Assembly (NCBI RefSeq): GCF_910592395.1
Contig: NC_088320.1
Location: 3,224,001-3,288,000 of the forward strand
Length of the DNA stretch: 64,000 nucleotides
Direction: 5' to 3'
Source of the DNA: Lineus longissimus
Lineage: Eukaryota; Nemertea; Pilidiophora; Heteronemertea; Lineidae
The notes under the pieces: model-generated
What the model saw: the letters and a program-made list of their open reading frames with translations, nothing else
Databases searched by the model: none
Told to the model about the DNA's origin: nothing
Part shown: piece by piece, positions 47,663-59,282 of the stretch
Numbering within the stretch: the first letter of the stretch is position 1
How the letters are laid out: every line of letters starts with the position of its first letter
Made by a program: the position numbers and the translations under genes

Positions 47663-50600
47663 ATGACAGAAGAAAACGTTAAAGTGGCAGTCCGTGTGAG
47701 GCCTTTCATATCCTTTTATTAAAAAAAACTTTTGTTGATCTCAATAATCAATGACATTTCTGTCAAAATCCATGAAATCTTCATTCATAGGCCTATCTTC
47801 AATCTTGGTCACTCAATCAGTCAATGATAGCGTGTGATTGATGATACTGCAATGTAGTTTACACATTCCATTTGGCATCCTAAAGGTTGACCATACTCCA
47901 TAGGCACTGTCATTTTTATATTTAAAAGCAATACTAGAACTAACAATGGAGATTTTGAAGCCGACAGAGACTTGTTTGTACTCTATCCAAACAAATTTCA
48001 ACCACCAAAGCCAAAGTCAAAATTGGGGGAGGGGCAAAATGGTACTGTATTGTATTAGTATTAAAAATCTTTGGGCTAAAATCATGGTCAAAAGCTACGC
48101 CCATGCATTCCAGTCAGACATTCAGGTATTTCTCACTTGTTCATGAAAACCAAACCTTTCCTTAACCATTCATACAATGGCCGTGAACGCCAACGGAATG
48201 CGACGCTTATCATGGACATGAACGGGTCTAATACCACAATCAAAGATCCAGAGAATATGAAGGAAGATGGGAGGAAGTTCACTTTTGATTACAGTTACTG
48301 GTCACATGATGGGTGTAAGGAGCGGTCTGATGGATACTGGGAGGCGGACCCCAAACATGCTAACGGAAAGAAGTTCTGTGACCAGGTAAGGCCGTGACGA
48401 TGCTGTTGAATAAAATGTAGTTGCATGCAATTTCTTTTCCAATTGATAGCGCCCTGTAGAAACTATTTAACTTTAAGAATAGCTCAGATTTAACATCATG
48501 AGAGCCAAAACTGACAAAATTGATGTTAAGCTATTGCCCTGAATGCTCTATTTTGGGACTGACAACTGTCCTTAATTGAGAGGTGCCCTGTTTAGAGAGG
48601 TCAAATTGAATGGATACAACTAATTTGGGACCAAAGCTAGTGTCCTTGATGAGAGGTTGTACTTTATAGAGAGGTGTCCGCCAGTGGAGGTTCCACCTGT
48701 ATTTTCATCTTTTTTCAGAAACGGGTCATGGACGATCTTGGGGCCGGCGTCCTGAAGAACGCCTGGGAAGGATACAACTCCACCTTATTTGCATACGGTC
48801 AGACAGGATCTGGGAAGAGTTGGTCCATGGTTGGCTATGGGGTAAACAAGGGAATCGTCCCCATGTTTTGTGAGCAGATTTTTGTCGGCATCGATGCGAA
48901 GAAGGCTGCAGGAGAAAAGATAGAGTTTGAGGTAAGCTTTGCATATTTGGAATGGAATTTGGAAAAGTCTAGATGACATGTTATCATTCTGAAAGCTGCA
49001 TGTCAAAGTGAGCTGTCAATTATGTCCAATTAGATTACCCTCGTTGCTAAATCTGCATAGAAACAGACACACTATTTCTAGTATGAAATGACATTTAGTT
49101 TTATATTTTCAGGTGTCTTTTAGTATGTTGGAGATTTATAATGAGAATGTGCGAGATTTGCTGAACCCTGCCAAAAGTCGTGGCGGGTTAAGAGTCAGGC
49201 AGCATCCCAAGAAAGGATTTTATGGCAAGTATAATGTATATCATCTTATAGCCATCAGAAATAATTCAATTTCCAGCACATATAAATGAGCTGGTCTTCA
49301 AAGATAGGATCAGGTTTGGGATACCTAAGGTCACGTCAACCAATTAGGGTCAAAAGAAGATAACACATTCAGCTTTAGCTTATAATTATGCTTTGCTTAG
49401 TAATAAACGTCAACATTTCAAAATCGCTGCTCCGTTGCTTTGACCTCAATGAAGGACAAGTTGTTTCCTCAATGTGATGGGCCAGTGTCACTTTCCATTG
49501 TATCTAATAGGACAGTTACTCACTTACAGATGATTGTCTGAACTGGCATTATCATATGGGCACTGTTTTAGTCAATCTGAACGTCAGACCAAAATATATT
49601 GTATACATGTACTTTGCTCAATAAAAGTTATTGAAACTATCATCTTGCTCGTTTCACTCAGCTGAGGGATTAAGAGTGGCCGCTGTCAGTAGTTACAAGG
49701 AAATAGAGGCCAAGATGGAAGAGGGAACCACTAACCGGACGGTGGCCTCGACGAACATGAACGCCACGAGTAGCCGTGCTCACACAATCGTCGGTATCAC
49801 GTTTGTGCAGAAGTTCAAGAACGCAGCTGGGGAGGAAACTGCTAAGACCGCTGTGGTCAACTTGGTGGATTTGGCTGGAAGGTAATGCTAATTCCCAACC
49901 TGGGTGATAGGGGCTAGCAAATTGACATAAAATACAACCTGTACTAACATAATCGAGGATAAAAACCAACTCTGAGTAAGAATCTGCTGGCTTATTGTTC
50001 AATTGGTTCTAAGGACAAGGGCCTGTCCCACTTTTTGTAGGACTAGACAGTGCTCCACCACAGGTCATCTTCCCAGGCAAGCCTGGTACCCATACACCTG
50101 GGTGAACGGACTAAAAGACTATGTCAGTACAAAGACACCCATGTTGCTATCATTAACCAACTTCATTAACCCCATGTCTTCCTTGATAGTGAAAGAGCCT
50201 CTAAAACTGGCGCAACTGGGGATCGCCTTCGTGAAGGCTCCATGATCAACATGTCCTTGTCGACGCTCGGTAACTGTATCGCAGCCCTAGCTGACCAGGC
50301 TGGTGGCAAACGGGTCAAAGGTATTGACGGGATTCAGTTTGCATGGTGTTCTGTTTGCCTGGGTGATTACTTGCATGTGTTCACGTATTCTCTCTGTCAT
50401 TGTCACATCAGTGACCTGCATCTCGCAGAATTTTTTAGAATAATTTGGATCTTGAAAAGATATTGGAATCGCATGCTTATCACATCTTATTGTGAGAAAA
50501 ACAGTTTCGACCAAAGCAAGGTAAAACTGTCTATTTTACATGTGTGTCACTTCTTCTTACTTCTTCACTGCACTTGTCTGTTTTAGTGAGCGGGCAGAGA

Positions 50601-53600
50601 GCACAGGCGCCACTGGTGACCGTCTTAAAGAGGGCGCTGCTATCAACCAGTCTCTGTCCACGCTGGGAAATGTAATATCCGCTCTTGCAGATCAGTCATC
50701 TGGCAAAAATGTCAAAGGTAAATATTGTGGCCATAAATATTTCCCGGTTTACCTTACTCTGGTAATTGATCCTATGCATCTAGAGAAACTGTATATTATC
50801 GTCTGCCCGTGAGTATTTTTAAAGAGGTGAATACGTTACATCGTATAAATTTCAATGCCTGTCCTTTTCCAGTGCCCTATCGTGACTCCGTCCTGACAAA
50901 ACTGCTGAAGAATGCTTTGGGTGGAAACAGCAAGACAATTATGGTAAGATAACTAGAACAGTATCTTTGGCCTTTTGCCGCGTGTCATTCTGAAACAACT
51001 TTGTTACAATCTTCCATTGTTTAATGGAATATGTAAAAGCTTCGTTTTGACCACTGATGACTTGGTGAGAACAGTAAACATCTTGGGTTGGTATAAAGTA
51101 TGTCAAAAGAACGTAAGAAATTTGAATTCGATTTTCAGATTGCAGCTGTGAGTCCTGCTGACATCAACTACGATGAATCTCTGGGAACACTGCGATACGG
51201 TAGGTTACGTTTAAAGGAGTTATGGTATTATTTGTTCAATGAGTTTGTTCTCCTCCTGTGTCATTAGTATTAAAGCGAGTAACTGACAAGGTACTAAGTT
51301 ACCTTTTTATAGGTGTAGCATCGTAGTTTCCTTTGCATGGTCAAGTAAATTTGTAATTGTTGTCTGCAGCTGACAGAGCAAAACAAATCAAGACGAAAGC
51401 CTCCGTCAATGAAGATCCGACAGAAAAGTTGATCCGAGAGTTAAAGGAGGAGAACGATGCACTGAAAGCGATGCTGGAAGGCGGCGGTGCAATGGTCATG
51501 ATGAAGGGTGGAGATGGAGATGTTGATGATATGACAGATGCAGGTGAGAGCTCCCGAGATTGAAATAAGCAGAGAAAATATGAAGTGTGTTTTATAAATT
51601 TGAATTTGCGGGAGGTTGATTGTGTAAAATATCTTCGCAGCGTTGGCTGTCTTGGACATGCGAGATATATTACATCATTACCAGGAGCAGGAACATGAGT
51701 TTGTTTGGCTGTGTTTGATCTTGTGTTTCAATGGACCGTTGTATATTTTCCAGAGCGTGAGGCTTACAAGAAACAGATGGAGGAGGAGTATCATGCCCTG
51801 GTCGAGGAGAATCAGCGTGAGATGGAGGAGATGAAGAAAACATTTGAAGAGAAGTTGGCAGCAAGTCATTCATCTGGACAGGTGGGTTTCAATTTTGGAG
51901 TCGACAGTGGGCTTTGCCCTGGAGATTTGATCTTGTTCTCTTGGTGCAGGAAGGTCAACCTAAACTTTCAGTGATAACCAATGAACCATTGCAGAAGTTT
52001 CGCCATTCTTACTTTCTTCGTATTTTCTTCAGTCTGACTTGTTGGAAGAACAACTGAAAAAAAAGAAGACCGTACCGCATATCTCCAACTTGAACTTTGA
52101 CCCCCAGTTGTCTGGCCATATCGTACACTTTGCTGAGGGGAGCAGGCGGATCACAGGCAAGAGAAGTGATGATAGCAACGACATTGTGTTGATGGGACCA
52201 AGGTTAGTAAGGACACTGAAGTGAAAACCTGGCTGTATATTCTGCGTCAAAGAAAATCTAATGGAAATTACAGCTGCTGATTCATTGATGTTTTTTAAAT
52301 TTTCAGTATGCAAGAAGACCATGCTACTCTTGTGAATGAGAAGGGTGTTCTGTTTGTAGAACCTTCAAGCTCCTCCGCCAAGGTGACACACAACGGTGTC
52401 CCGATTACTGAGAAGACCACATTAAAACACAACGATCGCCTCGTCTTTGGCACAAGTCAAATGTACGTCATCATCAATCCAAAGGAGCGGGATAGCTCAA
52501 AGAAGACGTATCCGGACATAACGTATGAGATGGCTTCAGAGGAGATTGCAGCCAACTCTGGTTTTGATATGAAAACCGAGAATAAATCAAAGGGTGAGAA
52601 TTGATCCTTTCGAAAGTTGAGCCCACAACCTGATACCTCCTGTTGATGAGCCTAGCTCCAAGGCTCAGAGGTCCAGGCGGTTTGTTAGTCTGATCCAGTG
52701 AAAGCTGACCATACTCCCTTAGCTTGACAAAAACGAGAAGCTTTTCTAATTCAGGCTATATTTGTTTCAGAGGAAATGTTACTACAAGAGGACTTGGTTG
52801 AAATGCTGCCAGCAGTGGAGGAGGCAAATGCAATCAGTGTTGAGCTCGACAAACGCAAGAAGTTCGAAGTGATGATTGTCTCTCCTGAGGCACGGGGTGA
52901 TCTCAAGGGAAGGAGTGAGGTGTTCGTCAAGACGATTGACATCGACACCGGCCACGAGTGGTTGTGGCCACGACATAAATTCTTCAACCGGAAATACGTG
53001 ATGCAGGAGATGTACCAGAATTATACGGAGGGAGAGGATTGGGAATTGCCACCGGTTGGTATCAGTTATGATTGCGTGATAACTTGGATTAACGGACCAA
53101 GATTAATCAGTCAACTCTTGTTTCAAGAACTGCACTGTTCCAATCAACAGAGTGTCATTACTGATCGACATCACATATTTTGGCAATTTCTGTGTTCTGC
53201 ATAGGCAACATCATAAAAAGAAATTGCAAGTTTTTCCTTATTCTTCAGGAAAAGGATCCATTCGGCGAGGACCCTGACGCCGAGGTCCATATCGGCAGTG
53301 TGAAGATCTGGTTACAGCCACTGTCCTACAAGATCGAGTTACGAGAACAACTAGAGATAACAGACTTCAAGGCCAATGAAGTGGGATTACTGAATGTAGG
53401 TTCATTCTTGTTAAGCCTTCCCCCTGGAAGTGTAGTTCACTTCAGTATTCAAGAAGATCAGAGCATCTGTGCACCTTCAGTAAAGCGAAGATGCTCAAGG
53501 CAACATGTTGTAGGTCAGAGCCTGCCTCTAAGTCTTATTTTCGCATCTGAAGGTTCAGTACCTTGTGTTTTAAGTGAGATCAAAAACCTTTTAACATCTT

Positions 53601-56548
53601 TGCAAAATAGATCAATGCATGCTCCAGCTGCTCAGAGCAGTATGCCATACCATGTATGCAAGACATGAGATATTTAATAGGCGACTCGGAACGGCCTTGC
53701 AGATGTACGCAATACCACATTGGAGCAAATGCCAACAATGGGAAGAGGTTGATTTCACATCGTATAAAAATTTCTCAATATTTTAGGTCGAGGTCATCCC
53801 ATGTGATGCTAAAGGGAAGGAGTACACGGAGCAAGATGATGTTTTCCTTGAGGATCCTCTTGAACTTATTGGTACCGACTGTAACTTTGTTGTGAAATTA
53901 AATAGTGCCAGGGGCTTGCCTAATAAATACACTGTAAGTAAATCAAAGATCATCTTATCAGGCTGTTTAGGTGGTAGAGCCCAATTTTGTCATCATTTCA
54001 TGATCAAGTTTTCTGTACTTACCTTGTTTCAATGCTTCCATACTTCAGGCTGTTTATGCCAAGTATCTGTTCTACTTGGACGATGAGTATTCAACGACAG
54101 GAAAGATTGACAACACAACCAATCCAGACTGGATCCATAAAAAGGTCTTCAGCTATAATCCGGCTACACATGAGGTGAATGATACTTTGATTTGATAGAA
54201 GGGTGTTTGGTAAAATACAAAGTTTATTGAAATGCCAGTGGGGCCAACTTTATAGCAAATTGCAGTTTAACCTTGTCATTCCTTAGTATTAGTCGACCTC
54301 ATGACCATGTCCTTGTCAGTGCTATGGCATCTCTCTTCGTGGCAATCAGCAAGTTTGGTCACTGACCTTAAATCATTATTCACTTGGGTATCTGATAAAA
54401 AGCCACCAATTAGAATTGTCTCATTCTGTATTTCCAGCTAGTCAAATACCTCTCCAACAGTGGCATTATGGTTCAAATATGGGGCCGCCACAAACCGCCG
54501 AAAGGTGCCAAGGCAAGTGGCAGTACCAAGCAGATCCTTCAGTCACAAACCAGCAAGGGAACCATTGCCACTACTGAGAAACATGTTGATGCGGATAAGA
54601 TAAAACTGGCGATGGAGGTCAAGATGCTGCAGAAAAGGCAGGAGAAACTGGAACAGAAATTGGTAAGAACGACTTGTTTTTTTAATCATATCATGCAATA
54701 GCATCCCGCGAAGTTACTATTTATAGCTCACAAGGTCATTTGCATAAGATATTGATGACGTTTTAGTCACGTGACAGGCGGACATCGACACTTATTTCTA
54801 CGCATTTGAGCTTATTTCAAAGTCAATTATCTTTGACCCTGCATTGTTTTTAGCATGAATGATACCATAGAGTCAGAGAGAGAAATATTCAGAACAATTA
54901 TGTAGTATTTCCAACACTCGGACATGTGCCAGATTGAATCTAACTGCCCTAGTTAGAAAGCCTGAATCCATTACGAAACCGCATTATTTGTCCGACATTG
55001 CCTGTAATTCAGCGATGGGGAAATAGAGGGCAGCAGCTGCAGTGACGTCATCTTCACGGAATGCTATTGATCTCGAAGAGAAGTTCATTTGAAATGAGTG
55101 CTGGTTGCAAGATGTATAACCTTGTATTATGCATTGCCAGGAACAGAAAAGACGATCTAAGTCACTTTATAAACTTTGTTCAGAAATACACTGTCTTTAC
55201 ATAAGGCGTGACCTACATACGGTCTCACTCCACAGTTACAACTCAAAACCCGCATCCGTGGTCTCATTTTAGGGTTTTCCCCAGATTTCCTGGTGGCACA
55301 GTCTCACTCCACAGTTGGGACTCTTGGGGATACTATACACAAGACAACTCTTAATTGCTGTGAGCTTGATTGCACTGTTGTATTGGTTTCCTCTGTACAT
55401 GATAGTACATGGTAGTGTGCACAGGTACATTTTGTGCTGCTGTACATGTAAATGTGTACTACTGGTACTATTATCAACAAGTTCTTTAAATCGGCGACTG
55501 TCTTTCTCTTCCAGGCCTGGTTCAGAAAGATGGTGGAGATATCGGACCAGTACAAAAAGAAACGCATCTCCCTGTCCGTGATCAAGGGCGTCCTGGAGGC
55601 CCACTCCCAGGATCAGGCCGAGAAGTGTATGGCACTCATTCCCAAGGAAGCAGGTAAATAGGTAAATAGTTCTATTGCCATGGTTACCAATGTTGTTTTT
55701 CCGAGTACGTGAGCATGATATTTTTAATGTCATTTGGAAATGTTGTTTGTGGCTGTGTTATTTCCTGTCCTGGTTGGTACTGTAATACCACCAATTTCAA
55801 ACTTCGCAAAGAACAAAAATTCTTGCATAAACTTCATGGGTTACTGTAGAGCGTCAAGAAAAAAGGAGTTGTAATAGTTGATATTCTTGCTTCTGGAATA
55901 AAGTTTTTTGTAGTCTACCAACGTTGTCCTCCTTCCATTCGCAGATGATGACGATGACCATGACAACAAATCTCCAAAGAAAGGTGAGATAGTTTACGTT
56001 ATTTTCAAAAGTTTCAATTTAGCTTTAGATATCAGTGTTTTTAGTATTGGCTTCACATTCAGCTTTTAGGAGTTACCTTGTTGACACTTGAAACTTAACT
56101 GAGGGTTTGGTCCCTTTAAATATATACTGGTTAACGGTAGATTTGCCAGAATCTGTTATCCGTGGTTTTTAAGGGGGTCAAAGACACACATTTTGGTTCC
56201 TTAATGTCCTCAATTTCGACATCCTCAATGAATACTGGCAAGTCTACTGTGGTACAAGTATATGAATTTGAATCACCGCCATGAAGATGGGGATACAAAT
56301 CATTTTGCTCAAAAGAATGAACATGTTTAGTACATTGAAGTGAGGGTAGGTGGCTCTGATGGTCAGAATAACTGGTATGGGGTTAATATTTCATGGGTTC
56401 TTAACTTAAGCTATTGGTTTATCACTAATCTCCTTTTATCATGACAGGATGGTTAATTGAATTATAATAATGACAAGTTGTCTAGGTGATTAACTCTGTT
56501 GAAGGCGCTAGTGGATTATTTACCACAGGACACCCCTCTGAAGGAGTG

Positions 56549-56579
<31 letters not shown>

Positions 56580-56677
56580 AAAACATTTTTATAGCACTTA
56601 ACGTTGTTAAAACTTCTAAGCGCTTTACAATTTATAATAAAACATAACATTAATACATGATAGAATAAAAGTCATTA

Positions 56678-56723
<46 letters not shown>

Positions 56724-59282
56724 GTGCAAAGGATTCAAAAGAATTTCTTAAAAATATGAGTTTTTAGTGCAGTTTTACACGGCTTTACTGACTTTCCTGG
56801 TTTTATTGCCGCTATGGCAATACTACACTTGGCTCTGTATCAGCCTGCTGACTATTGTTAATTGTAAAAGCAATCTTTAATTTTTCTCTCAACTTGATGG
56901 GGAAAGATTCCTATGACACCCATGTATCTTATGATGAGAAAATGATTTTCTCGTCCATCTCTTTGAAGATGATCTCGTGTAATCTTAAACTGAAAATATT
57001 TGCGGGAGACAAATTAATGATATTGTGTGCTGGATTCTGAGATTCTTTACAATGTGAGAATCTTCATGGCTGTGAAATATTACGACTCATTTATCAGTGT
57101 TTGAAAGCTGTGGTGTTGGAAAGGTTACTGCAGCATGGATTTGTCGGGGGAGACTTCATAATAGATAAATCTATGATGGATGTCTTTTGGTATATGTATC
57201 AATCCTTTGAAAATTGAATCTGTACGAAGAGGTTTAATGGATTTTTTCTGATATCCAAATTGTGCACTATTTGGGCTGAAAAGTGTTGAAATGAGCACTT
57301 GTTGCAAGACAATCCTTGGCTTTATTGCTTCATAGCTTGCTTGCACTATTTCTGTTTAGTTGCCTGTCAAGTCAAGTCTGTATTGGCTTGATTAGGCCAA
57401 TGTGACAAGTGAGAGCCAGGGACACAGCCAAGATCAACAGTTCGATCGCTAAGACTGTGCCCCTGCCCATTTGTTATGGCCGTGAGAAGTATCAATTTGT
57501 CATCTAGCTCATAACCATTATCAGTGAGAAGACGCTTGGCTGGGTGGAAAGACGCGTTGCCGCATATCTTGATTAACCATGAAACTCTTCAAATACAGAC
57601 TTGACTTGGTAACCTATAGACCCTTCCTCGGTGATGGACTAATAGGCCCCTCCTCCTTTTCAGCCTTGAAGTCTAGAAAGCACTCTTCCTCATCCAGTAG
57701 TAGCTCGTCTAGTGATAGCGATTCCGATTCTGAAAAAAAGAAAAATAAACCGAAAAAGAGTAAAAAGCCCAAGACTGAAAGTCAGGACTCAAGTCCGAAA
57801 AAGCCTAAAAAAATCAAGGTTAAGAGTGCAGAGTCGAGTCCAGAGAAGGAAAATAAGAAATCTTCTACTTGCATGCTTTTGTAACAGATTGGTGTCCATG
57901 TCTGTTGAGGGTAGAGATTTTTGTTGCATGGCAATGTGATAATTATCCATACGTTGTGTGACAAATCATCACTTGTCTGTGAGTAGATTTGGTCATTGCT
58001 GGGTTTGACAAGTATTGCAGGTCACAGTATGAGTGTGACTGTGGAGCCAGTGTGTTCGTTATAACAAATTGACATTCTATTGAAGTGCGTGTAATTTTGT
58101 GTTAGAATATACATGTATGTGTTTTGGAACTGTCTTGTTACATGGAAATTGTTCACTTGTTCAGATGTTTACCACAATTTCAGGAGGCGAAAAAACTGCC
58201 TATACGTATATTCAAGTCAATCAATAGAATTTCAAAGAATTGTACCTGTTGGTAAATCTTTTTGTCAACGACCTAGTTGGTAATGTTTTCACTAAGTTTC
58301 ATGCTTATACATTTACCTGTGTATCTGATGGACTTCTCTGGACTGGTTTTGATGTAGGGCGCCGATTGCAACATTTGCCATTCAAAGGCCTCCACTGATA
58401 TCAACACCCTGCTTTATTTGTTGTCCCGTCTTTATTGAGATCATTCCATTATAGAAAGTAGCTCTGCTTTTGCTGCAATTTACCATATCATACAATTCCC
58501 TACAACTTTAATTGCAATTTCTTCTTTATACCATCAAGTCTTTTTCTCATTGTTTCCTTTATACTTGATTCTATTCTAACATCTTTATTGATTGATGGAA
58601 TACGATATATTTCTTGTTTGATATTTGGTTAAAGTTACTGCCGACTTTCATTGAATTGATGAACTAGGTATGACTGCAATATTTTGTTCTAATTATCCTC
58701 CTCTCTTAATCTTTTTTTTACCAATGCTGCATCTTTGGTTGCTATGGTAACTAATCAGGTCATAAAGAAGTAAAAAAATGTGTTCTAAAAGACCCTCAAA
58801 ATCCTGGGAACACGGGAACCCCTGAAAGTAATGTGACACCTTCAAATCATCAATCTCTTGCAACGAAACGACGGGTGTCCTTTCAAGCAAGGGGCGAACT
58901 TCTAAATTTGTCCTCCATGGGCCCCCACCAAAGTGTATCAAGTTTAAGTTCCGCAAGCAGGTCTTGCTCAACTTGTTCATTAAGTTCACGGCAATCAGAG
59001 TCCTCTGTCGTTCCCAAATGTGACGCCACAGGTCAAGTCAAAGTTATAACAAACGAAATGTACAATTATCCCGATTTAATTGCCCATTCGAGCCATTCCG
59101 GTGAAGTCTGTCAGACACCATCTGACACGTTACCTCGTCCAAGGCGCCGATCTCGTGCTAATTCTATCTATTCCTGGGTCCCAGGTGAGAAGGACCCAAG
59201 TTCTTTGCAGCGGCGGAAGTCCACGGGTACGATTCAGACCAGCAGCAAGTCAGCCAGTTCTCGCACATGTATTTTGTTGTAG
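47663..59282 (+). CDS. Kinesin-3 motor, KIF28/KLP-6-like, with CaaX C-termini
   Basis: Twenty coding positions: 47663-47707, 48176-48385, 48719-48931, 49113-49224, 49662-49881, then 50190-50320 or 50587-50717, then 50873-50943, 51139-51199, 51370-51543, 51754-51881, 52033-52202, 52307-52593, 52771-53054, 53249-53395, 53787-53933, 54049-54174, 54438-54662, 55515-55653, 55945-55983, then 57664-57884 (1049 aa) or 58759-59282 (1150 aa). The N-terminal motor domain has P-loop GQTGSGKS (112-119), switch I NATSSRAH and switch II DLAGSE; a neck and short coiled coil follow. An FHA domain (about 475-580: [28 protein letters not shown]) is followed by a [20 protein letters not shown] region, a C2-like segment ([10 protein letters not shown]) and another coiled coil. 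No PH or PX domain is seen, which points to KIF28/KLP-6 rather than KIF1, KIF13 or KIF16B. C. elegans KLP-6 is ciliary; vertebrate KIF28 is linked to mitochondria. Confidence 0.85.
47708..48175 (+). other. U12-type AT-AC intron of the kinesin gene
   Basis: The intron starts ATATCCTTTT, the U12 5' splice-site consensus, and ends CATAC|AATGG. The U12 branch-point consensus TTCCTTAAC lies at 48158-48166, about 10 nt before the terminal AC. Splicing at these points gives [15 protein letters not shown], the expected kinesin start. No GT-AG alternative gives that junction. Confidence 0.9.
49225..49661 (+). other. GC-AG intron of the kinesin gene
   Basis: The donor is TATG|GCAAGT, with GC in place of GT; the acceptor is CACTCAG|CTGAG. 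The junction gives KKGFYAEGLRV in frame. No GT donor at this point preserves frame and motif. Confidence 0.8.
50190..50320 (+). CDS. Kinesin mutually exclusive exon 6a (switch II/alpha4)
   Basis: A 131-nt exon entering in phase 2 and leaving in phase 1. It encodes [20 protein letters not shown] followed by [16 protein letters not shown]. Loop 11, helix alpha4 and loop 12 of the motor lie here, the main microtubule contact. Differences from 6b include GSMINM for GAAINQ and NCIAAL for NVISAL. Confidence 0.88.
50587..50717 (+). CDS. Kinesin mutually exclusive exon 6b (switch II/alpha4)
   Basis: A 131-nt exon of the same length and phases as 6a, 266 bp downstream. It encodes [20 protein letters not shown] followed by [16 protein letters not shown], closer to the usual kinesin-3 sequence. 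Because 131 is not a multiple of 3, using both exons or neither shifts the frame, so exactly one must be chosen. Confidence 0.92.
56540..56722 (+). mobile_element. Probable retroelement fragment: (ATT)n, AAGCGCTTTACAA core, 43-A tail
   Basis: In the kinesin intron, an ATT microsatellite (about 56558-56580) is followed by TATAGCACTTAACG...TAAGCGCTTTACAA and then an uninterrupted 43-A run at 56680-56722. The order fits an inserted SINE or LINE tail. No target-site duplication was found. Confidence 0.45.
57664..57884 (+). CDS. Kinesin alternative terminal exon 20a, ending CMLL
   Basis: Encodes a Ser run, then Asp/Ser and Lys/Pro-rich sequence, ending KKSSTCMLL and stop. CMLL is a CaaX box with final Leu, the type used by geranylgeranyltransferase I. 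The lysine-rich stretch before it could act as a second membrane signal. It enters in phase 1 from exon 19. Confidence 0.85.
58759..59282 (+). CDS. Kinesin alternative terminal exon 20b, ending CILL
   Basis: After an AATCAG acceptor the exon is open in the same phase as 20a for 174 codons, ending SSRTCILL and stop. CILL is again a CaaL prenylation box. The body is Ser/Arg-rich with three basophilic kinase motifs: [14 protein letters not shown] and QRRKST. Its only shared feature with 20a is the terminal CaaL box and Ser-richness. Confidence 0.82.

What the first reader, a model, noticed from the sequence alone, without database searches (positions are those of the whole stretch)
57664..59282. 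A kinesin-3 with two alternative tails, each ending in a CaaL prenylation box
Seen: two phase-matched terminal exons end in CMLL-stop and CILL-stop. The two tails otherwise differ, so the shared CaaL ending looks selected. Known: Cys-a-a-Leu at a C-terminus is a GGTase-I signal; CENP-E and CENP-F are farnesylated, but I know of no prenylated kinesin-3. Inference: a lipid tail would let this FHA kinesin bind membrane directly in place of a PH domain, and tail choice (Lys-rich 20a or phosphorylatable 20b) would set which membrane or when.
Basis: partly seen in the sequence, partly recalled or inferred. Interest (0 to 1): 0.9.

Follow-up and report, generated by a model that had tools for sequence, protein, structure and literature searches.

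The report
Kinesin-3 (KIF28) with conserved lipid-anchor tails
A ribbon-worm motor protein of the KIF28/KLP-6 family has alternative tail ends that each carry a signal for attaching a lipid, and most KIF28 relatives found in other animals end in the same signal, so these motors are probably lipid-anchored, perhaps for delivery into cilia.

Summary
The window is Lineus longissimus DNA with a KIF28/KLP-6 gene (47663-59282) and two phase-matched ends, SSTCMLL-stop and SRTCILL-stop. No transcript model with the CMLL end was seen, but that end resembles mollusc KIF28 tails.

The box is a family trait: 170 of 226 retrieved homologues end in CaaX. In the window's clade X is L/M/I in 69 of 69, never Q; elsewhere it is Q in 85 of 101. 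Of 29 genera with both kinds, 29 and 27 follow this. Serine lies three residues before the cysteine in 169 of 170, the high-affinity PDE6-delta ciliary-cargo code described for INPP5E (PMC5512577, passages). Nematode KLP-6, a ciliary motor, lacks the box (0 of 8). Sixteen homologues end instead where an intron seems read through, without a box.

Prediction: prenylated, perhaps PDE6-delta/Arl3-sorted kinesin-3s. My searches showed no paper saying so. Prenylation is untested; no vertebrate KIF28 appeared in the lists.

The parts
47663..59282 (+). KIF28/KLP-6 kinesin-3 gene, 20 coding exons (model)
   Evidence: open frame over all splice combinations tried; Pfam Kinesin, FHA, KIF1B in RefSeq P0001; best PDB match is KLP-6 7wrg, E 4e-227
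55515..55653 (+). exon 18; reading through its donor would give PKEAGK-stop, an end without a CaaX box
   Evidence: sequence GCAG|GTAAATAG; homologues ending at the same place; AATAAA at 55897 in the intron. No Lineus transcript seen
55945..55983 (+). exon 19, common upstream partner of the tails (phase 1)
57664..57884 (+). tail 20a, Ser/Lys-rich, ends [12 protein letters not shown]
   Evidence: open frame, acceptor, codon use +0.282, resemblance to mollusc tails; no transcript model seen
58759..59184 (+).
   Evidence: open and with an AG acceptor but intron-like codon use and skipped in RefSeq X2
59185..59282 (+). tail 20b as in RefSeq isoform X2, ends [12 protein letters not shown]
   Evidence: P0001 protein, acceptor CCCAG|GTGAG, codon use +0.288
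57861..57884 (+). S-x-x-C-a-a-X box of 20a (SSTCMLL) with stop
   Evidence: Ser at -7 in 169 of 170 CaaX homologues
59259..59282 (+). S-x-x-C-a-a-X box of 20b (SRTCILL) with stop

Best explanation
The gene is the nemertean member of the KIF28/KLP-6 branch of kinesin-3, and most of that branch consists of lipid-anchored motors. Shown by sequence: a conserved C-terminal Ser-x-x-Cys-a-a-X box, which both Lineus ends keep although their linkers differ; X = L/M/I in one old paralogue and mostly Q outside it; homologues with another end that lacks the box. Inferred: prenyltransferases modify the cysteine (GGTase-I and/or FTase for CaaL/M, FTase for CaaQ); the lipid and basic linker hold this otherwise monomeric, autoinhibited motor on membrane; and the fixed Ser three before the Cys makes the prenylated tail a high-affinity PDE6-delta cargo that Arl3 releases in the cilium, which fits the ciliary role of KLP-6. 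Choosing 20a, 20b or the read-through end would tune linker charge or remove the anchor, as in formin INF2. Confidence by step: selected CaaX box 0.97; prenylated in vivo 0.88; both Lineus tails used 0.75; PDE6-delta/cilium use 0.5.
For: 170 of 226 homologues end in CaaX; Cys at -4 in 112 of 140 non-redundant proteins not chosen by tail, at most 3.6% at the other 29 of the last 30 positions. Clade A X: L50, M18, I1, Q0; rest: Q85, S5, M5, L4, F1, V1; 29 genera in 7 phyla have both, A is L or M in 29, B is Q in 27; clade A has 100/99 support in a careful tree of body columns. Ser at -7 in 169 of 170. Lineus paralogue ends ETSAACVIQ. Exons matching FTase beta, GGTase-I beta and RabGGTase beta are in the genome. 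Ser at -3 of the prenylated Cys bonds Glu88 of PDE6-delta and marks high-affinity ciliary cargo (PMC5512577, passages); Ser -3 cargo includes geranylgeranyl types (PMC9857354, passages). KLP-6 moves in cilia (PMC12646758, passages).
Against: No lipid was shown on any KIF28. Nematode KLP-6 is ciliary without the box (0 of 8), so the lipid is not needed for ciliary work there. Ser-to-Lys at -3 did not keep NIM1K or UBL3 out of cilia (PMC9857354). The -1 residue is mostly Ala (100 of 170), Val or Thr, not the Ile or Met of INPP5E and GRK1. 56 of 226 homologues lack the box: 16 read-through, 8 nematode, 32 fragments, partial models or other ends. PDE6D was not found or excluded in this genome: the search did not complete. 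A mammalian study linked KLP6 to mitochondria (PMC8077471, passages).
Confidence: 0.7

Rival explanations
1. Generic membrane anchor: the prenyl group and basic linker dock the motor on some other membrane (vesicle, plasma membrane, mitochondrion); Ser -3 serves another end, such as a phosphorylation switch next to the lipid.
For: Basic tails; INF2-type precedent for an ER anchor (PMC11589041, passage); mammalian KLP6 linked to mitochondria (PMC8077471, passages).
Against: An invariant Ser at one exact place without conserved flanks is what a binding pocket would ask for; the family's best-known member works in cilia.
Confidence: 0.3
2. The prenyl group mainly makes a protein-protein contact, as farnesyl does for CENP-E at the fibrous corona, not a membrane contact.
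For: CENP-E precedent, also CaaQ (PMC10630089, passages); would suit the CaaQ paralogue.
Against: No conserved partner surface next to the box: linkers are free apart from Ser -7.
Confidence: 0.12
3. Only one Lineus end is real: 20a (or the 5' part of 20b) is an open frame that is not spliced in.
For: No transcript model with 20a in view; no canonical poly(A) signal after it; 58759-59184 has intron-like codon use.
Against: 20a has a good acceptor, coding-type codon use, low chance of being open, a mollusc-like end and its own S-x-x-C-a-a-L box.
Confidence: 0.2
4. The CaaL endings are chance.
For: None found.
Against: Conserved Cys -4 and Ser -7 with free linkers, and a last residue that follows the paralogue.
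Confidence: 0.01

Closest known systems
KLP-6 (C. elegans) and KIF28/KIF28P, kinesin-3
   Same: Motor, FHA, MBS/KIF1B and tail domain layout; KLP-6 is the best PDB match.
   Different: Nematode KLP-6 lacks the CaaX box (0 of 8 nematode proteins); the papers seen do not mention a lipid on it.
CENP-E (kinesin-7)
   Same: A kinesin with a C-terminal CaaX box (CKTQ) that is farnesylated (PMC10630089, passages).
   Different: Another kinesin family, works at kinetochores; no alternative ends described in the passages seen.
KinesinCaaX of Trypanosoma brucei
   Same: Farnesylated kinesin, C-terminal CVIM (PMC3206815, passages).
   Different: Reported only from kinetoplastids, not a kinesin-3.
Formin INF2 (CAAX and non-CAAX isoforms)
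   Same: Alternative splicing gives a farnesylated and a cytosolic end (PMC11589041, passage).
   Different: An actin formin; in Lineus both drawn ends keep the box and the box-less end is only inferred.
INPP5E, GRK1, RPGR, Rab28: prenylated PDE6-delta cargo
   Same: Ser at -3 of the prenylated Cys in INPP5E and GRK1 (PMC5512577, passages); RPGR ex1-19 carries a CAAX box and binds PDE6D (PMC8037643, passages); Rab28 acts in the neurons marked by klp-6 (PMC7043889, passages).
   Different: None of these is a motor.

Membership tests
KIF28/KLP-6 kinesin-3 | Kinesin motor, FHA and KIF1B (MBS) domains | tested here: met
   Pfam scan of P0001: Kinesin 2.5e-97, FHA 2.4e-09, KIF1B 5.4e-05, above cut-offs
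KIF28/KLP-6 kinesin-3 | Overall homology to KLP-6 including the tail (MATH) part | tested here: met
   7wrg matches residues 7-851 of P0001, E 4.2e-227, far above KIF1A; sequence only, no fold compared
KIF28/KLP-6 kinesin-3 | No PH domain | tested here: met
   none in the Pfam scan at E up to 0.01
CaaX prenylation substrate | Cys-aliphatic-aliphatic-X at the very C-terminus | tested here: met
   CMLL and CILL; 170 of 226 homologues
CaaX prenylation substrate | CaaX prenyltransferases in the genome | tested here: met
   exons matching FTase beta (C3) and GGTase-I beta (C2)
CaaX prenylation substrate | Lipid on the cysteine | not testable with these tools
   needs labelling or mass spectrometry
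High-affinity PDE6-delta ciliary cargo | Ser three residues before the prenylated Cys | tested here: met
   169 of 170 CaaX homologues, both Lineus ends and the Lineus paralogue
High-affinity PDE6-delta ciliary cargo | Hydrophobic residue just before the Cys | tested here: inconclusive
   Ala 100, Val 29, Thr 21, Ser 7, Ile 5, Leu 3, Met 2, Phe 2, Cys 1 of 170; Thr in both Lineus ends
High-affinity PDE6-delta ciliary cargo | PDE6D gene present in Lineus | not tested
   search sent five times, never answered
High-affinity PDE6-delta ciliary cargo | Nanomolar binding and Arl3 release | not testable with these tools
   bench assay
Alternatively spliced CaaX ends (INF2-like) | Transcripts for each end in the same species | tested here: inconclusive
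   CILL end in the RefSeq X2 model; CMLL end not seen; P0051/P0057 show box and no box on 99.7% identical bodies, species of P0057 unnamed

The most novel reading that the evidence does not exclude
KIF28 kinesins are lipidated motors that are themselves delivered as cargo: prenylated on an ancient S-x-x-C-a-a-X tail, taken up by PDE6-delta and released by Arl3 inside cilia, where the lipid docks the monomeric motor on ciliary membrane. Two paralogues older than the bilaterian-cnidarian split carry different prenyl classes (CaaL/M and CaaQ), and alternative 3' processing makes an unlipidated form. Nematodes dropped the lipid, so work on KLP-6 could not see it.
Probability: 0.42. Interest if true: 0.87.

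Novelty: new variant of a known kind. Interest (0 to 1): 0.74.

Why it matters
The prenylated kinesins that I met in the papers are CENP-E and a kinetoplastid kinesin; a whole animal branch of kinesin-3 with a fixed prenylation box would be a new way to couple a transport motor to membrane. It bears on an open point in print: full-length KLP-6 is monomeric in vitro and is thought to need other factors or an unidentified way to dimerise (PMC10945585, abstract and passages; PMC12646758, passages). The Ser -3 rule gives a sharp, cheap prediction (PDE6-delta/Arl3 cargo), and the L-versus-Q pair asks what the two prenyl groups do on similar motors. Medical reach is limited: human KIF28P is classed as a pseudogene (PMC12646758).

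Tried and rejected
Rejected: chance; the box as a Lineus novelty; spider P0048/P0050 as two ends of one gene (the pair is absent from the list of pairs above 78% identity, so they look like paralogues).

Not settled: vertebrate KIF28 tails. One search listed all of its 117 hits; searches listed 120 of 347 and 120 of 7877. No vertebrate name was among the rows listed; the box may be present, changed or lost there. I had no set of other kinesin-3 C-termini as an outside control; the control is other positions of the same tails. Against a clean split: the quick tree of 228 rows gave clade A 0.21 support and left Trichoplax outside, and on the 140-row tree Q against not-Q needs 7 changes and box against no box 21. 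The careful tree used 49 of 228 rows chosen by hand. Clade counts come from the tree; 'the rest' there is all outside A and need not be a clade. Row sets: 226 database proteins, none dropped from the 170 of 226; 140 non-redundant rows out of 191 of at least 860 aa. The pattern for read-through ends gave 17; I removed P0182, a partial Nematostella protein. The loose pattern C-x-x-x counted one more end (P0116, CEQR), left out of the 170.

Paper searches: 10 of 10 used. KIF28 with prenylation: 0 papers. klp-6 with prenyl: 2, of which I opened one. Kinesin, CaaX and related terms: 11 of 11 listed. Searches listed only 15 of 148, 20 of 5712 and 12 of 366. The library lacks most subscription papers, Tanaka 2011 among them, so absence from print is not proven.

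Recalled, from no call: that EukProt code Nk52 (P0095) is an ichthyosporean (a taxonomy look-up of the name I recalled gave nothing) and Opistho-2 (P0117) a filasterean. That 'lgn' and 'jgi' contigs of the read-through proteins (2.6-5.0 kb) are RNA is inferred from their shortness.

Full report
What the sequence shows. A model of 20 coding exons on the + strand (47663-59282) reads without an internal stop; exon 19 ends in phase 1, and both 57664 and 58759 continue the frame, to C-M-L-L-stop and C-I-L-L-stop. The RefSeq model 'kinesin-like protein KIF28 isoform X2 [Lineus longissimus]' (P0001) is 100% identical over the part searched, and its contig length, 16,850,461, equals that of the window's contig C13, so the window is bootlace-worm DNA.

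Which tails are real. I saw the protein, not reads. The stretch 58759-59184 is open but has intron-like codon use, while 20a and the X2 part of 20b have codon use like the rest of the gene. 20a has no transcript model in view; its end, [11 protein letters not shown], resembles mollusc KIF28 ends. No AATAAA or ATTAAA separates 20a from 20b, so alternative 3' splice sites in one long last exon are as likely as two last exons.

The box across the family. Three protein searches gave 226 homologues (the second and third lists were capped). 170 of 226 end in Cys-a-a-X. Among 140 non-redundant proteins not chosen by their tails, 112 have Cys at -4; at the other 29 of the last 30 positions Cys is at most 3.6%. 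By named taxon (125 of 167): annelids 7 of 7, nemerteans 3 of 3, Lingula 3 of 3, echinoderms 19 of 20, hemichordates 6 of 7, cephalochordates 3 of 3, cnidarians 10 of 13, flatworms 3 of 3, priapulid 1 of 1, ctenophore 1 of 1, molluscs 51 of 68, arthropods 13 of 20, tunicates 3 of 5, placozoan 1 of 2, sponges 1 of 2, rotifer 0 of 1, nematodes 0 of 8. Some rows are partial models. P0095, EukProt code Nk52, recalled as an ichthyosporean, ends CNIQ, so the box may predate animals.

Two paralogues, two endings. In a careful tree from body columns (49 hand-picked rows, 887 columns) the window gene's clade has 100/99 support and includes anthozoan and placozoan proteins; Q against not-Q needs 4 changes. 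Over all rows (quick tree, clade A support 0.21, Trichoplax outside), clade A ends in L50, M18, I1 and never Q; the rest end in Q85, S5, M5, L4, F1, V1. Of 29 genera with a box in both, clade A is L or M in 29 and the other protein Q in 27; the exceptions are Apostichopus (S) and Glandiceps (L). Lineus itself has the pair: the paralogue's gene lies at C16:3341866-3355136, and its last exon ends ETSAACVIQ-stop. Human GGTase-I modifies CaaL/I/M but not CaaS/Q in yeast (PMC11152559, passages), so the paralogues should differ in the lipid they can take, although CaaL can be farnesylated too.

A longer motif. Ser lies at -7, three before the Cys, in 169 of 170 boxes and in 111 of 112 non-redundant ones, against 10.4% Ser in the same tails; the exception is Mytilus P0004. 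Both Lineus ends ([16 protein letters not shown]) obey it although their linkers are unrelated. This place is known: the Ser at -3 of INPP5E bonds to Glu88 of PDE6-delta, residues -1 and -3 set the affinity, and high-affinity cargo is released by Arl3 in cilia (PMC5512577, passages). Ser -3 is common among PDE6D cargo of both prenyl types (12 of 25), although Ser-to-Lys mutants of NIM1K and UBL3 still entered cilia (PMC9857354, passages). KLP-6 carries polycystins in cilia (PMC12646758, passages). I therefore favour the ciliary-cargo reading, at about even odds.

Ends without the box. 56 of 226 lack it. Sixteen stop 3-5 residues after the homologue of exon 18 (KGK, KGRKQ, EGK, EGN and the like), as expected if that donor is read through; five are RefSeq isoforms (Liolophura X2, Physella X3, Mercenaria X2, Pollicipes X2, Eriocheir X2) and eight are unnamed contigs of 2.6-5.0 kb that look like RNA. 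P0051 (Argopecten, CILL) and P0057 (unnamed, EKGK-stop) are 99.7% identical over 932 residues. In Lineus the same read-through would give PKEAGK-stop, with AATAAA at 55897. An anchor on/off choice like that of INF2 (PMC11589041, passage) may thus be old. Nematode KLP-6, used in the two KLP-6 papers that I opened, lacks the box (0 of 8), and both papers used C-terminal tags.

How it most likely works. Shown elsewhere: KLP-6 is an autoinhibited monomer (PMC9314371, passages and section 7). Inferred: FTase or GGTase-I, for whose beta subunits this genome has matching exons, lipidates the tail; PDE6-delta carries it and Arl3 releases it to ciliary membrane, or it docks on another membrane; crowding there favours activation. 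Tail choice tunes linker charge (20a +12, 20b +11, X2 form +4) or drops the lipid. Whether Lineus has PDE6D was not learnt: the search did not complete.

What is known. CENP-E and trypanosome KinesinCaaX are prenylated kinesins of other kinds (passages). The searches showed no report of a prenylated kinesin-3 or of a box in KIF28, within capped lists. Each ingredient is known and the combination appears new: 'new variant of a known kind'. Main gaps: no wet test, no vertebrate tail, no transcript of 20a, no outside control set of kinesin-3 tails.

Noticed in passing
50190-50320 and 50587-50717: Two 131-base exons of the motor (switch II to loop 12: [30 protein letters not shown]... and [30 protein letters not shown]...) with the same phases look mutually exclusive. 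RefSeq X2 uses the second; 213 of 228 proteins are nearer to the second, 7 to the first, 8 tie; the first has coding-type codon use (+0.323).
   Followed up: partly
47708-48175: First intron looks like a minor (U12) AT-AC intron: donor ATATCCTTTT, branch-like TTCCTTAAC, acceptor AC. RefSeq X2 starts at a later Met (MDMNG) and so lacks exon 1 ([15 protein letters not shown]), whose homologue opens the Lineus paralogue P0137.
   Followed up: partly
49225: The intron after exon 4 has a GC donor (GCAAGT).
   Followed up: no
P0012 (Babylonia isoform X2), P0021 (Littorina isoform X2); no window coordinates: Caenogastropod clade A proteins show no CaaX (0 of 7, some partial); two end in related cysteine clusters (LCCCKKKL, CLCCRKGKL), perhaps an S-acylation anchor in place of prenylation.
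   Followed up: partly
L012 and L032 (contig C11, about 10.23-10.26 Mb): Exons 46-81% identical to parts of the KIF28 paralogue lie on C11; another kinesin-3 gene, its type not worked out.
   Followed up: no
56551-56580 and 56682-56722: An (ATT)n repeat and a run of about 40 A in intron 19, upstream of the alternative ends.
   Followed up: no
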